This document shows positions 31,363 to 36,351 of a stretch of 64,000 bases of DNA, one piece after another. Under the pieces are notes generated by a model, which was given only the letters and a program-made list of their open reading frames with translations, searched no databases and had not been told where the DNA came from. The first letter of the stretch is position 1, and each line of letters opens with the position of its first letter. The DNA lies in NCBI GenBank assembly GCA_019747875.1, contig JAIEQI010000089.1:1-64000 (forward strand). The letters run 5' to 3'. Source of the stretch: Candidatus Obscuribacterales bacterium (GTDB taxonomy: Bacteria > Cyanobacteriota > Vampirovibrionia > Obscuribacterales > Obscuribacteraceae). Both the position numbers and the translations under genes were made by a program.

Positions 31363-33702
31363 ATGAAAAAGTCACTAATAATTTCTGAAGCAGACAACAT
31401 CGCAGCACTCATGGAGAACGATCGCGTTGTCGAATTTTTCGTCAACCGCGGCGAACTCCTCCTGGGTGATATTTACGTAGCGATTGTCGAAAACATACTT
31501 CCCGGCATCGATGCCGCTTTCGTCAATCTCGGCAAAGACAAGATGGGTTTCCTTCACGCCAATGATATTCCCGGTGAAGGAGCTTTGAGAGAACGTCTTG
31601 TTCCGAAGCAAAAATTGCTGGTTCAAATTACAAAAGAACCAACGGGTCATAAAGGTCCACGGGTGTCCACCGCAATCAGCCTTCCAGGACGTTTCCTGGT
31701 TCTCGTTCCTGAAGAGCGCGGAATTTCTATTTCTCGTCGCATTAGCGAATCGAAAGAACGGGCACGATTGAAATCGGTAGTCACATTGATGAAACCGCCA
31801 GGTGTAGGCGTCATTATCAGAACGGAAGCAAAAGGACAAAACGAAGCTTCACTCTTCGAAGATTTCGAGCAGCTTTGGGATCGTTGGCAAACAATCGTCT
31901 CTGAGGGCGAAGCATCAATCGGACCGAAACTCGTTTATCGTGACCAGGATCTTCTGTATCGTGTCATTCGTGATGCTTACAGCACAGACGTAACTGAAAT
32001 TATCTGCGACACCCAAGATGGTCAACGTCGGGCCTCAGACTTTATGTCCGGCTGGGCCGGACGCACGACCAAAGTTCTGCAACATTCCGGCGATGAGCCT
32101 CTGCTCATTTCCAAGGGAATCGACAAAGACATAGAAACAGTGCTATCTGATCGCGCCGACCTACCTTCTGGAGGTCACCTGAACATTCAACCGACAGAAG
32201 CGCTTACTGTTATCGACGTTAACTCGGGTCGATTTACAAGTTCAAGAACACAAGCCGAAACAGTCAGAAAAACAAACATTGAAGCAGCCCAAGAAATTCC
32301 GCGCCAATTGCGCCTGCGCAACATCGGCGGCATGGTAATAGTCGACTTTATCGATATGGAAAGCCGTCGCGATCAACAGCAGGTTCTTGAAGTGTTCAAC
32401 CGAGCATTAGAAGATGACCGAGCCAAACCACAAGTTGGTCAGATGTCAGACCTCGGTCTTGTCGAACTAACAAGACGAAGACAGGGACAGAGCTTGCGAG
32501 AACTCTTTGCAGAGACCTGCCCGCATTGCTCAGGAACCGGTGCCATGCCGACTTTAACCCTGGGTAGCGGCGAGAACAAGCGAGTCATCTCATTACCGAA
32601 CAGAGACGAAGATGCCCTCAAAGGCAAAGGCAATATGAAGGGGCGCGGTCAAGCCAACAAGGGGCAACTACGCGCAGTTTCCGCAACTGGTCAGCGATTA
32701 CAGCCAACAGTTCAAGATTTTGAGCCGGCAAGCGAAGAAGGTGTTGAGGAAGAAATCGCAGAAGTTCCGGAAGAGATTCTGGAGCAAATGCCAGATGAGT
32801 TGCTCGAATCACCGAACCCTATATCAGATCGCGGAGCCAGAAAAGGCTACCCATTGGCAGATGAAGATGAAGGCGAGGAAGAGGAGAATGCTTCCTCCAG
32901 CCAGCCGACAGCAAGCTATAACAATCGCACTGCTACGAGTCCTCAAAGGGCCTCATCTTATCCAAGTTTGAAAACGCAAACGAACTTCGACGAAGATGAA
33001 GATGAAGGAGATGATGACGAGGAAGAAGACGAATTCAGCGCTGAAACAACTACATCGATTTCCATTTCAGATCTCGAAGACGAAGAGGACGAAGACGATG
33101 AAGATGCTGATGAAATAGCCTTTGCAGAACCAGCAGTCGAAGTGCAGGTGGAGGAGCCCACCGTAACAGTTGAAGCAACACCGCTTCCCGAAAGCGATTT
33201 TGAAACAGAGGTTGATCCCATTACCGGTATCTATCGCCTAAAGCCAAAAGACAAAACAGAGTTTTCGACGGAAGCAAGCGAAGAGCAACATTACGAAGGA
33301 ACGCAGATCCATGCGGATGAATATTCATCCGAAACAACTGAAGTTCTAAATACTCCAATCACAGCGGCACATGGCGATCTCGATAACGCTGATGATGCAG
33401 CTACTCAGCTTGAGTTGCCTTTCGATCAATATGCTGAAACAACTCCGGAGCAATTTATGGAAAGTCAGCAGATCGAAACGTACAACGAAGAGACGAATCA
33501 TCAACATGAGACTTACTCCCATGAGCACAGCCATACTCATGGAGATCATGAGCACAGCCATGAACACTCACATGAACATGGACATACACATGATCATGAA
33601 CACGCTCACGATCACTCTCATGGATCCGGCGATTCTAATTCAGAGGAAAGCAACGAGCCAACTCGCGTTGAACACAGCTTTAATCGTCCAGACAACGAAT
33701 AA
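31363..33702 (+). CDS. RNase E/G-family ribonuclease with acidic and His-rich C-terminal tail
   Basis: Endoribonuclease for RNA processing and decay, 779 aa. The N-terminal half holds the S1 domain (about 38-115) and the catalytic core, with Asp285 and Asn287 in VIDVNSGRF and Asp328 in DFIDM. The zinc-link motif CPHCSGTG lies at 386-393. The last 370 residues are not catalytic: a very acidic stretch (about 500-600, runs of Glu/Asp) and then about 50 residues of HEHSHTHGDHEHSHEH-type repeats (about 711-760). In other species the tail is a disordered scaffold for partners; the His tract should bind metal ions. AAGGAG lies 16 nt upstream of ATG 31363, further than usual, but the N-terminus MKKSLIISE fits the family. 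Confidence 0.92.
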   Translation: MKKSLIISEADNIAALMENDRVVEFFVNRGELLLGDIYVAIVENILPGIDAAFVNLGKDKMGFLHANDIPGEGALRERLVPKQKLLVQITKEPTGHKGPRVSTAISLPGRFLVLVPEERGISISRRISESKERARLKSVVTLMKPPGVGVIIRTEAKGQNEASLFEDFEQLWDRWQTIVSEGEASIGPKLVYRDQDLLYRVIRDAYSTDVTEIICDTQDGQRRASDFMSGWAGRTTKVLQHSGDEPLLISKGIDKDIETVLSDRADLPSGGHLNIQPTEALTVIDVNSGRFTSSRTQAETVRKTNIEAAQEIPRQLRLRNIGGMVIVDFIDMESRRDQQQVLEVFNRALEDDRAKPQVGQMSDLGLVELTRRRQGQSLRELFAETCPHCSGTGAMPTLTLGSGENKRVISLPNRDEDALKGKGNMKGRGQANKGQLRAVSATGQRLQPTVQDFEPASEEGVEEEIAEVPEEILEQMPDELLESPNPISDRGARKGYPLADEDEGEEEENASSSQPTASYNNRTATSPQRASSYPSLKTQTNFDEDEDEGDDDEEEDEFSAETTTSISISDLEDEEDEDDEDADEIAFAEPAVEVQVEEPTVTVEATPLPESDFETEVDPITGIYRLKPKDKTEFSTEASEEQHYEGTQIHADEYSSETTEVLNTPITAAHGDLDNADDAATQLELPFDQYAETTPEQFMESQQIETYNEETNHQHETYSHEHSHTHGDHEHSHEHSHEHGHTHDHEHAHDHSHGSGDSNSEESNEPTRVEHSFNRPDNE

Positions 33703-33801
33703 GCAACCCAAGCGCAGCTAAGAAGAGAAGGCATCCTAATCGATCTTGCTTGCGTTCAATTTCGAGCAGGTAGTAAAGGGTAGTAAGGCGGATATTTCTG
33801 C

Positions 33802-33830
33802 TTGACACACATACGCACGTATGGTATATT
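33802..33830 (+). promoter_or_regulatory. Strong sigma-70-type promoter with extended -10
   Basis: TTGACA (33802-33807), a 17-bp spacer and TATATT (33825-33830), with TGG just upstream of the -10 box as an extended element. This is the best promoter seen in the window. No protein gene with a good start follows closely on this strand. Transcription would start at about 33837. Confidence 0.75.
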
Positions 33831-33971
33831 ATTTATATTGAATTGGTCGGTTGTACGGCTCAAATAATCGTGGCGTTGCCTGATTATCGCCAGAGTGTAC
33901 ACCGAGCGGAGTGTGCGGGCCCGCCGCTCCGCCCGGAGGTGTGCTCACTGTCGATACATGAGGCAACTTAG

Positions 33972-34103
33972 ATGAGCTGGATTTCGTCAAGATCTGCAGC
34001 AGCTGGCAAGCATGCCGCTTGCTGGTCCGCGCTTCACACCGGCAGCGCCGCCGCTAAATTAGTGAGAGGATCTGCAGCAGTTTGCAAGCATGCCGCTTGC
34101 TGA
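33972..34103 (+). CDS. Possible 43-residue small protein (uncertain)
   Basis: An ATG at 33972 with GAGG 8 nt upstream opens a 43-codon frame within the promoter-driven region. The peptide is rich in Ser, Ala, His, Lys and Cys, and repeats SAA-x2-KHAAC twice because the two 47-bp DNA repeats sit in the same frame (78 bp apart). It could be a real small protein, but the repeats are palindromic and may simply be intergenic elements that happen to stay open. No family is recognised. Confidence 0.2.
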   Translation: MSWISSRSAAAGKHAACWSALHTGSAAAKLVRGSAAVCKHAAC

Positions 34104-34115
34104 TCCGCGCGTCAC
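33991..34115. repeat. Two 47-bp palindromic repeats
   Basis: Copies at 33991-34037 and 34069-34115 both begin GATCTGCAGCAG, share the centre GCAAGCATGCCGCTTGC and end in CCGCGC-TCAC, with about six differences. Each can fold through GCAAGC/GCTTGC. Paired palindromic units of this size look like a REP-type intergenic element. Confidence 0.75.
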
Positions 34116-34132
34116 CAGGCAGAGCAGTGCTT

Positions 34133-35140
34133 TTACTTTGGCATATACATGCTGAGGCTCAGGCCGAGACGGACAGGCGGAGCATAGCGTTCCGGCGGAA
34201 GTACGGATGCATCAACACTTGCTTGCGGATTTTGTTGGAGTAGGTTGCGAACCGCATTTATATCTTTGACAAATTGTTGATCTTCGACAAAAAATGCGCC
34301 AACAAAATTACCGGTATGAATGAACGTAAAAATGCAGCCCGCGACAGCGATGCAAGCAGTTTGTTTGTTGCCTGTGAACCAATTGAAGATGTAGTCGAAA
34401 TAATCGGGAGCATTCCAATCATCGGATCTTTGAATAGGTTCCCCTAAAAACAAAGCCGCGATCGACAGCGCAAGCTCATCAGGCAACCAATATCTGAGCA
34501 TGCGTGTACCAGGGGTATGGCAATCAGCAAGGGTCATCTGCAAGGAGTTTTCGATCGATAACGGATCTTTTTGTCGCTCGCTGCTATAAAGGCACCCTAC
34601 AGCGCGCCCTTTGTACAAAACAACTACGCCTCTAGATTTCTTGTCATTGCAAGTGGTTTTGATACACCCAGTGCGCATACCACCTTCCATATCTGTGACC
34701 AGCCAGAGTAAATCTTCGACTTGCTCAATCCGCGTTTCGAATGGCTCACTAAGTGGTGGCAAAATAAGATCGGTGGCGCGCCTGCTATGCTTCACCGGCT
34801 GTGGTGGCGGCACAAATTGTTGCTGCAACTGTTGTGCCGATGGAACCACGCTACCGTCAAGTCCTTGAGCAGCAATTTCCTGCCAATTCGTTTTTGATTG
34901 TGAAAGGTCTGCCTTTCGATCTTTGCTTGCAGACGCCAATGGAGAGAATTCAAGCTGTCGCCCTACAACTCTTGATATCCGCACAAGAACATCCGTTCCG
35001 AGTTTCATCTGATCATCAGTACTCAAAAATCCTTTGTAGTTATCTTTCACAATAACTACCTCGTACCCTTTGGGCACAGGTTTGATTATTTTGACAGTGA
35101 CTGTCTGTCCGGCTTTGTAATTATGGTTCCAAGGAGACAT
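34133..35140 (-). CDS. Hypothetical protein with N-terminal S1-like domain (paralogue 2)
   Basis: A 335-aa soluble protein. The first 70 residues (YKAGQTVTVKIIKPVPKGYE, KDNYKGFLSTDD, LGTDVLVRISRVVGRQLEF) look like an OB-fold of S1 type, as in RNA-binding proteins. A short Gln/Pro linker leads to a C-terminal domain (about 115-335) of unknown family, with LLWLVTDMEGGMRTGCIK, VVLYKGRAVGCLY and a conserved end LGLSLSMYMPK. It starts 8 nt after the stop of the similar upstream gene, without its own clear ribosome-binding site, so it is probably translated by coupling. Function unknown; RNA binding is an inference from the OB-like part alone. Confidence 0.7.
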   Translation of the reverse strand: MSPWNHNYKAGQTVTVKIIKPVPKGYEVVIVKDNYKGFLSTDDQMKLGTDVLVRISRVVGRQLEFSPLASASKDRKADLSQSKTNWQEIAAQGLDGSVVPSAQQLQQQFVPPPQPVKHSRRATDLILPPLSEPFETRIEQVEDLLWLVTDMEGGMRTGCIKTTCNDKKSRGVVVLYKGRAVGCLYSSERQKDPLSIENSLQMTLADCHTPGTRMLRYWLPDELALSIAALFLGEPIQRSDDWNAPDYFDYIFNWFTGNKQTACIAVAGCIFTFIHTGNFVGAFFVEDQQFVKDINAVRNLLQQNPQASVDASVLPPERYAPPVRLGLSLSMYMPK

Positions 35141-35148
35141 TGCTACAT

Positions 35149-36351
35149 CTACGTTTTCGGCATGTTCATGCTGAGACTAAAACCAAGCCGAACAGATGCT
35201 GATGTAAGTTCGGGCGGCAGAATCGAAGCTTCTACCCTTGCCGACTTATCCTGCGCAATCATGTTGTACACGAAATTGATGTCTCTGGAAAATTCCTGAG
35301 ACTCTACATAAAACGCTCCGACAAAAGCTCCGCGATGAATGAAAGCCAGCAGTGTTCCAGACGCTTCATACACAGAATAGGCAAGACATGCGGTTTGCTG
35401 TTTTTGCGCAAACCAGTTCATGATGTAATCCATGTAGGATCGCGCATCAAGATCGTCAGTTCTTTCTACAGGATAGCCCAAGAAAAGAGCTGACATAGCC
35501 AGCGTGACTTCCTCAGGTAATCCGTACATCACTAATTGGGTGTTCGGCGTCTGGCAGTCCGATAACATCATTTGCAGTGAGCTTTCGGTAGGCAATGGAT
35601 CTGTCATGCCTTTGTTGCCATAGATGCAACCTACTGCTCTTCCGCGATAAAGCAGAACTGCTGATCGCGATTTGCGTCCTTCGCAAAATGCTTTTACACA
35701 TCCGGTTCTCATTCCACCTTCGAGATCTGTTATCAGCCACAGAAGATCATCGCTTTGACCAATGTTCATCTTGTTGGGCTGCTGGTTCTTATCCAGAGGC
35801 GGCAAAATCAGGTCGATGGCTCTCCGCAAGCGGAAGTTGAAAGGCTTGTTTTCGGCATAGACTTTGAATGCTAAGTCCGGCTCACTGAGCTGTCCTTGAG
35901 CTTGATACGCTCCTGATTGAGCGCCGTAAGCGCCTGACTGAGCTCCAGCTTGTCCTTGTTGCGCTCCTGGAGCGGCATTGTATTGCCCAGATTGCCCACC
36001 ATAACCAGGTCCGTAGGCGCCGGACTGGATAGGATCATAAGAGTGAGCCCCGCTTGCAGCCAGCTGCTGCCAATCAGGTGTTTGCTGTTTCGTCTGAGGC
36101 TTGGAGGCTGCAGCGTTTTGATTACCTCCCAATGTGCGAGAGGAAAGCAAGATGCGGTTGTTATGGACACATACATACTGGGCCAGAACTTCCTCACCAA
36201 TCTTGAGCTTGGCTTCAGTCGGCAAAAAACCTGGCAAATTATCCTTGGGGATTAGCACCGCATAGCCGCCAGGTTCAGCCTGAACGACTTTACAGGCAAC
36301 AGTCTGCCCAGCTTTGTAGCCCGTAACTTGCCAAGGATTAACCCGTTTCAT
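35149..36351 (-). CDS. Hypothetical protein with N-terminal S1-like domain (paralogue 1)
   Basis: A 400-aa protein built like its downstream neighbour: an S1-like OB segment (YKAGQTVACKVVQAEPGGYA, KDNLPGFLPTEAKLKIGEEVL), then a longer linker rich in Gly, Gln and Ala (SGAYGAQSGAYQAQ-type repeats, about residues 100-155), then the shared C-terminal domain (LLWLITDLEGGMRTGCVK, VLLYRGRAVGCIY, SLSMNMPK). The two form a tandem duplication. The start is ATG 36351, with AGG 5 nt upstream. The strict sharing of the GGMRTGC segment suggests a binding or catalytic site. No known domain name can be given. Confidence 0.75.
   Translation of the reverse strand: MKRVNPWQVTGYKAGQTVACKVVQAEPGGYAVLIPKDNLPGFLPTEAKLKIGEEVLAQYVCVHNNRILLSSRTLGGNQNAAASKPQTKQQTPDWQQLAASGAHSYDPIQSGAYGPGYGGQSGQYNAAPGAQQGQAGAQSGAYGAQSGAYQAQGQLSEPDLAFKVYAENKPFNFRLRRAIDLILPPLDKNQQPNKMNIGQSDDLLWLITDLEGGMRTGCVKAFCEGRKSRSAVLLYRGRAVGCIYGNKGMTDPLPTESSLQMMLSDCQTPNTQLVMYGLPEEVTLAMSALFLGYPVERTDDLDARSYMDYIMNWFAQKQQTACLAYSVYEASGTLLAFIHRGAFVGAFYVESQEFSRDINFVYNMIAQDKSARVEASILPPELTSASVRLGFSLSMNMPKT

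What the first reader, a model, noticed from the sequence alone, without database searches (positions are those of the whole stretch)
33802..34130. Best promoter in the window has no gene: candidate new structured RNA
TTGACA-N17-TATATT with an extended -10 drives a region that folds into a bulged long stem enclosing a perfect hairpin, then a GC-rich stem, then two palindromic repeats. It matches no RNA class I can recall, and it points at the end of the convergent S1-like gene, so antisense action is also possible.
Basis: partly seen in the sequence, partly recalled or inferred. Interest (0 to 1): 0.7.

Follow-up and report, generated by a model that had tools for sequence, protein, structure and literature searches.

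The report
LexA-controlled (SOS) structured small RNA
A strong promoter with no gene behind it carries the binding site of LexA, the DNA-damage repressor, and drives a strongly folded small RNA present in three copies in this uncultured, apparently Obscuribacterales-like bacterium, so the RNA is probably switched on when DNA is damaged.

Summary
From the -35 box to about 33,970, the segment recurs at two other places in the same genome (87-90% and 81-83% identity, unrelated flanks), so it is a three-copy unit made of promoter plus ~130-nt RNA. The long stem folds far better than shuffles in all three copies (z about -5 to -7), and no Rfam family matches. It is not the genome's 6S RNA, for which a better candidate lies elsewhere. 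The 47-nt repeats after 33,990 are not part of the unit. The same palindrome type lies before lexA in 18 of 19 family/order genomes checked, and before imuA-imuB, dnaE2-like, ssb and ribonucleotide-reductase genes. The RNA is therefore most likely SOS-induced. Three of at least seven recognisable LexA-type promoters of this genome drive it. A different genus has an unrelated structured RNA with covariation behind the same promoter type. The most likely role is a trans-acting RNA regulator of the SOS response. No target was found, and conserved antisense action is not supported. Transcription and LexA binding are inferred, not measured.

The parts
33802..33807 (+). -35 box TTGACA
   Evidence: exact consensus, identical in all three genomic copies
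33810..33823 (+). LexA (SOS) box CATACGCACGTATG, perfect palindrome CATAC-N4-GTATG filling the -35/-10 spacer
   Evidence: only ATAC-N4-GTAT site in the 64-kb window (0.065 CATAC-N4-GTATG expected); same site type before lexA in 18 of 19 family/order genomes
33822..33830 (+). extended -10: TGG TATATT
   Evidence: sequence
33837..33970 (+). predicted structured small RNA, start about 33837, conserved 3' limit about 33967-33980
   Evidence: conserved with copies at G000:C216 and G000:C111; fold z -4.0
33852..33868 (+). invariant, mostly unpaired segment TGTACGGCTCAAATAAT (candidate pairing site, inferred)
   Evidence: identical in all three copies; no excess of complementary sites in the genome
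33864..33887 (+). alternative small hairpin (ATAATCG/CGATTAT-type stem enclosing GGC-GCC), mutually exclusive with the long stem
   Evidence: -8.0, -8.0 and -5.2 kcal/mol in the three copies
33875..33967 (+). long bulged stem, starting GTTGCC and closing GGCAAC
   Evidence: folds in all three copies, z -5.2, -7.2, -5.2; one compensatory T-A/C-G change
33904..33932 (+). invariant terminal hairpin GAGCGGAGTGTGCGGGCCCGCCGCTCCGC
   Evidence: identical in all three copies; absent from viral contigs
33991..34037 (+). 47-nt repeat copy 1, outside the conserved unit
34069..34115 (+). 47-nt repeat copy 2, outside the conserved unit
34133..35140 (-). convergent S1-like gene, context only
   Evidence: no Pfam match

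Best explanation
The segment is one of three copies of a free-standing small-RNA gene under LexA control. In undamaged cells LexA sits on CATACGCACGTATG, between and touching the -35 and -10 elements, and blocks a near-consensus promoter. After DNA damage, RecA-stimulated LexA self-cleavage frees the promoter and a ~130-nt RNA with a protected, strongly folded 3' stem accumulates from three loci. Most likely it then acts in trans, through its invariant unpaired 5' segment (UGUACGGCUCAAAUAAU) and/or its hairpin loop, to tune other mRNAs during the SOS response, as the LexA-controlled sRNA DinR does in Klebsiella. Shown here by sequence: the three-copy unit, the fold, the LexA-type operator. Inferred: transcription, LexA binding, induction, base-pairing action and target.
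For: (1) Three genomic copies conserved from the -35 box to the end of the stem, flanks unrelated. (2) Stem fold z -5.2, -7.2, -5.2 in the three copies; stem kept with indels and one compensatory change. (3) Operator: ATAC-N4-GTAT lies just upstream of lexA in 18 of 19 full-length lexA loci of the family and order, including this genome's lexA (TATACTTACGTATG), usually the only such site in the 2.9-3.7-kb locus. (4) The promoter pattern TTGACACNCNTACNNNNGTATGGTA with up to 2 mismatches gives hits in 23 of 50 family genomes, none for the reversed control; their downstream genes are mostly SOS genes: imuA-like, dnaE2-like, umuDC-like, ribonucleotide reductase. (5) In this genome CATAC-N4-GTATG precedes imuA-imuB (RecA-like plus IMS domain), ssb, and the ribonucleotide-reductase small subunit. 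(6) This LexA has HTH and S24 peptidase domains and keeps the cleavage-site and Ser/Lys motifs by eye. (7) Genus g37 has an unrelated two-copy structured RNA behind the same promoter type, with covariation beyond shuffles.
Against: No expression data exist. Only three copies, 81-90% identical, so covariation in the window RNA itself is one pair and does not beat shuffles (167/500). The RNA was found in no other genome of the class (289 searched), so conservation rests on paralogs. No intrinsic terminator in the window copy. No target: near-complements of the invariant segment are no more frequent than the control, and duplex energies with own SOS leaders are within background. recA itself mostly lacks the box. 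The C111 copy has a degenerate operator half-site and a weaker -10.
Confidence: 0.66

Rival explanations
1. A 5' leader (UTR) of SOS-induced mRNAs, not an independent sRNA: the fold regulates a downstream gene in cis, and the window copy is an orphan that lost its gene.
For: Two copies are followed on the same strand by genes 265-290 nt further on. LexA-box promoters before imuA and ribonucleotide reductase in this family often have leaders of 160-290 nt.
Against: The downstream genes of the two copies are unrelated, of no recognised family, and 265-290 nt beyond the conserved part; the C216 gene has promoter-like sites of its own; the window copy has a convergent gene instead. The RNA does not resemble this genome's imuA leader.
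Confidence: 0.15
2. A type I toxin-antitoxin mRNA: the LexA-controlled transcript encodes a small toxic peptide, as tisB, dinQ or symE do, and the fold controls its translation.
For: LexA control plus a long structured 5' region is typical of tisB/dinQ (from knowledge; PMC3567139, PMC8145889). A GTG-started frame (VALPDYR...) begins at the same place in all three copies.
Against: No ribosome site before it; the frame is broken by a 1-nt indel in the window copy and its C-terminus is not conserved; no conserved hydrophobic peptide; no antisense RNA promoter recognised.
Confidence: 0.08
3. An antisense regulator of the convergent S1-like gene.
For: The transcript points at the 3' end of that gene, and no intrinsic terminator is seen before it.
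Against: The conserved unit stops about 160 nt short; the other two copies do not face such a gene; the site is empty in the same genus (G002, L116; L014).
Confidence: 0.04
4. A small mobile or repeated DNA element (MITE-like) that happens to carry an SOS promoter.
For: Three dispersed copies in one species, absent from relatives.
Against: No terminal inverted repeats (it starts at the -35 box and ends at the stem), very low copy number, no transposase seen in the fetched flanks, and promoter, operator and stem are all conserved.
Confidence: 0.05

Closest known systems
DinR sRNA of Klebsiella pneumoniae (PMC10907235)
   Same: LexA-controlled, damage-induced non-coding RNA of similar size (157 nt), acting in trans during SOS
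   Different: [quoted passage not shown] here the RNA has its own LexA-type promoter, comes in three copies and is folded into one long stem; no sequence relation is known
IstR-2/tisB, symE/SymR and dinQ/agr of E. coli
   Same: LexA-controlled loci involving small RNAs (from knowledge; PMC1891008, PMC3567139)
   Different: those are toxin-antitoxin loci with a peptide or protein; no peptide gene is conserved here
6S RNA (RF00013)
   Same: long bulged stem, stand-alone gene
   Different: no match to RF00013 in the window; the genome's own best 6S candidate is at G000:C144:28978-29181
Genus g37 SOS RNA (G063-G065), found here
   Same: same LexA-box promoter, about 165 nt from -35 to end, two copies per genome
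   Different: different sequence and a two-domain fold; no cross-match of the two covariance models

Membership tests
LexA (SOS) regulon of this bacterial family | operator of the same form as in the lexA promoter | tested here: met
   CATAC-N4-GTATG against TATACTTACGTATG before lexA, 18 of 19 loci
LexA (SOS) regulon of this bacterial family | operator overlaps the core promoter | tested here: met
   33810-33823 fills the -35/-10 spacer
LexA (SOS) regulon of this bacterial family | LexA binding and induction by DNA damage | not testable with these tools
   needs EMSA and transcriptomics
stand-alone structured ncRNA gene | own promoter, no conserved reading frame | tested here: met
stand-alone structured ncRNA gene | fold more stable than shuffled sequence in all copies | tested here: met
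   z -5.2, -7.2, -5.2
stand-alone structured ncRNA gene | covariation supporting the fold | tested here: inconclusive
   one compensatory pair among three copies, not above shuffles
stand-alone structured ncRNA gene | terminator or defined 3' end | tested here: inconclusive
   no intrinsic terminator in the window copy; a weak terminator-like site in the C216 copy
6S RNA RF00013 | covariance-model match | tested here: not met
   own 6S candidate elsewhere
type I toxin-antitoxin | conserved small hydrophobic peptide with ribosome site | tested here: not met
trans-acting base-pairing sRNA | complementary target mRNA | tested here: inconclusive
   no excess over control

The most novel reading that the evidence does not exclude
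Obscuribacteraceae use dedicated, free-standing, multi-copy, fast-evolving structured RNAs as direct members of the LexA regulon. Unrelated RNAs in different genera sit behind the same operator-promoter, a non-coding arm of the SOS response.
Probability: 0.45. Interest if true: 0.75.

Novelty: new variant of a known kind. Interest (0 to 1): 0.58.

Why it matters
RNAs placed directly under LexA are rare: the 2024 Klebsiella study reports that, toxin-antitoxin RNAs aside, it found no directly LexA-regulated sRNA other than DinR (PMC10907235). Here LexA-box promoters drive structured RNAs in two genera of a non-photosynthetic, deep-branching cyanobacterial group, with three copies in one genome. 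That makes the question whether SOS has a dedicated RNA arm testable. The work also yields a well-supported LexA-box consensus (CATAC-N4-GTATG) for this family; a limited search of the open-access library returned no paper on it.

Tried and rejected
Rfam at gathering and permissive thresholds: nothing real. 6S RNA: own candidate elsewhere. Covariance model R1 of the three copies in 40 relatives and 289 class genomes: only the own genome. Hairpin core in viral contigs: none. Same place in relatives: S1-like loci of other genomes have no such RNA there. Small ORFs: no ribosome site, frame broken between copies. Target search with the invariant segment: 10 non-self hits against 14 for the control; none clearly at a gene start. 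The imuA leader of this genome contains ATTTGAGC, complementary to 8 nt of the segment, but its duplex energy is ordinary. R2 (genus g37 RNA) hit in G050, E 0.001, has no LexA box and looks like chance. recA promoters mostly lack the box.

Full report
CHECKING THE OBSERVATION. The promoter is as described: TTGACA (33802-33807), a 17-nt spacer, TATATT (33825-33830), with TG one base upstream of the -10. It is the only 11-of-12 match in the 19 kb scanned around it. Downstream on that strand there is no gene; the next gene, 34133-35140, is convergent. The long bulged stem is real: 33872-33967 folds at -52.4 kcal/mol with z -5.2 and no shuffle as good, and 33837-33970 has z -4.0.

THE UNIT. Using 33780-34140 as a DNA query against 30 genomes gives matches only in the window's own genome, but three of them: the window, G000:C216:52751-52943 (87% identity) and G000:C111:10466-10638 (81%); with the C216 unit as query the window copy is 90% and C111 83%. 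Alignment shows conservation running from the -35 box (or about 14 nt before it) to the close of the long stem near 33967-33980, then stopping; flanking genes are unrelated. Two blocks are identical in all copies: TGTACGGCTCAAATAAT (33852-33868), predicted mostly unpaired, and the terminal hairpin GAGCGGAGTGTGCGGGCCCGCCGCTCCGC (33904-33932). The three stems have z -5.2, -7.2 and -5.2. One pair shows a compensatory change (T-A to C-G), but with three sequences this does not exceed shuffles. The unit is therefore promoter plus one ~130-nt RNA, not promoter plus 294 nt.

THE OPERATOR. Between the two promoter boxes lies CATACGCACGTATG, a perfect palindrome CATAC-N4-GTATG. A search for the promoter with this palindrome (up to 2 mismatches) in 50 genomes of the family gave hits in 23, and none with the reversed control pattern. 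Reading the genes behind the hits showed mostly SOS genes by sequence: imuA-like (RecA-like) followed by imuB-like, dnaE2-like (PHP plus polymerase III alpha), umuD/umuC-like, and ribonucleotide reductase. This suggested LexA. The test was to look at lexA itself. TIGR00498 found lexA across the relatives. In 18 of 19 full-length lexA loci of the family and order, one ATAC-N4-GTAT site lies just upstream of the gene, and it is usually the only one in the 2.9-3.7-kb locus; the 19th (L072) has a near-miss. In this genome it is TATACTTACGTATG, overlapping the lexA -10 box. In the own genome, exact CATAC-N4-GTATG occurs 8 times (about 8.6 expected by base composition, 2 for the control pattern), so the count alone proves nothing, but the positions do: the window RNA, the C216 RNA, imuA-imuB (RecA-like and IMS domains by Pfam), ssb, and a ribonucleotide-reductase small chain conserved with its box in G001; the other three lie inside reading frames without a promoter. 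The C111 copy has a one-letter variant (CCTACATATGTATG). The own LexA protein has HTH and S24 peptidase domains and, by eye, the cleavage-site and Ser/Lys motifs. I conclude that CATAC-N4-GTATG is the LexA box of this family and that the window RNA is a LexA-regulon member. recA itself mostly lacks a recognisable box, which is a limit of the picture but not uncommon in bacteria (knowledge).

A PARALLEL CASE. In genus g37 (G063-G065) the same promoter type drives another RNA, two copies per genome, about 165 nt from -35 to the end of conservation, 70-95% alike among six sequences. Its two-domain fold has 99.5% of cells paired, three pairs with changes on both sides, and covariation score and paired cells above all 500 shuffles; single members fold with z about -6. 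It lies upstream of a YhcG-family nuclease gene and imuA. It does not match the window RNA's model, nor the reverse. So LexA-box promoters drive at least two unrelated structured RNAs in this family.

WHAT IT IS NOT. No Rfam family matches. The genome's 6S-like candidate is elsewhere, G000:C144 (41.6 bits, below the cut-off but recurrent in relatives). No conserved peptide: the shared GTG frame has no ribosome site and is shifted by a 1-nt indel in the window copy. Antisense to the S1-like gene cannot be the conserved role, because only this copy faces that gene, and the S1-like loci checked in other genomes, including same-genus G002, have no RNA there. A MITE is unlikely: no terminal inverted repeats and only three copies. 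A cis-acting leader is the most serious rival, because some SOS genes here have 160-290-nt leaders, but the genes after the other two copies are unrelated and distant, and one has promoter-like sites of its own.

HOW IT MOST LIKELY WORKS. Shown by sequence: an operator filling the spacer of a near-consensus promoter, hence repression by occlusion is expected; three gene copies; a stable 3' stem; an invariant unpaired 5' stretch. Inferred: on DNA damage LexA is cleaved, the RNA rises from three loci, and it acts in trans by pairing. An alternative small hairpin (33864-33887) excludes the long stem and may form first during transcription. No target could be named: near-complements of the invariant stretch in the genome do not exceed the control, and pairing energies with own SOS leaders are within background.

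NOVELTY. LexA-controlled RNAs are known as toxin-antitoxin partners and as DinR, which is processed from dinI mRNA and represses ftsZ (PMC10907235); [quoted passage not shown] A free-standing, multi-copy, LexA-repressed structured RNA, with an unrelated counterpart in another genus, is a new variant of that kind. A few searches of the open-access library found no report of it or of this LexA box; absence from that library is weak evidence. Organism: contig L014, which matches the same-genus genome G002, is labelled Candidatus Obscuribacterales; the window genome itself is unnamed.

Noticed in passing
family-wide; own loci L059, L083, L086, L088: CATAC-N4-GTATG appears to be the LexA box of Obscuribacteraceae, before lexA, imuA-imuB, dnaE2-like, umuDC-like, ssb and ribonucleotide-reductase genes; recA mostly lacks it.
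   Followed up: yes
G063:C256, G064:C5/C12, G065:C92 (L021, L026, L048, L050, L057): A second, unrelated LexA-box-driven structured RNA with covariation, two copies per genome, near a YhcG nuclease gene and imuA.
   Followed up: partly
L032, L033, L039, L040, L053, L086: imuA genes of this family often have LexA-box promoters with 160-290-nt leaders that may be structured; possible cis regulation.
   Followed up: no
G000:C144:28978-29181 (L009): Candidate 6S RNA below Rfam's cut-off but recurrent in 18 of 30 genomes searched; 6S of this group seems under-modelled in Rfam.
   Followed up: no
window 34133-36351 (-): Tandem pair of related S1-like genes after RNase E/G with no Pfam match; same-genus G002 has a single such gene at this place.
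   Followed up: partly
window 33991-34037 and 34069-34115: Two 47-nt repeats with palindromic cores next to the convergent gene; not found elsewhere in the genome at high identity.
   Followed up: partly
window 32958-33221 and 33500-33640: Acidic Asp/Glu tract and His-rich tail (SHEHSHEHGHTHDHEH) at the C-terminus of the RNase E/G gene.
   Followed up: no
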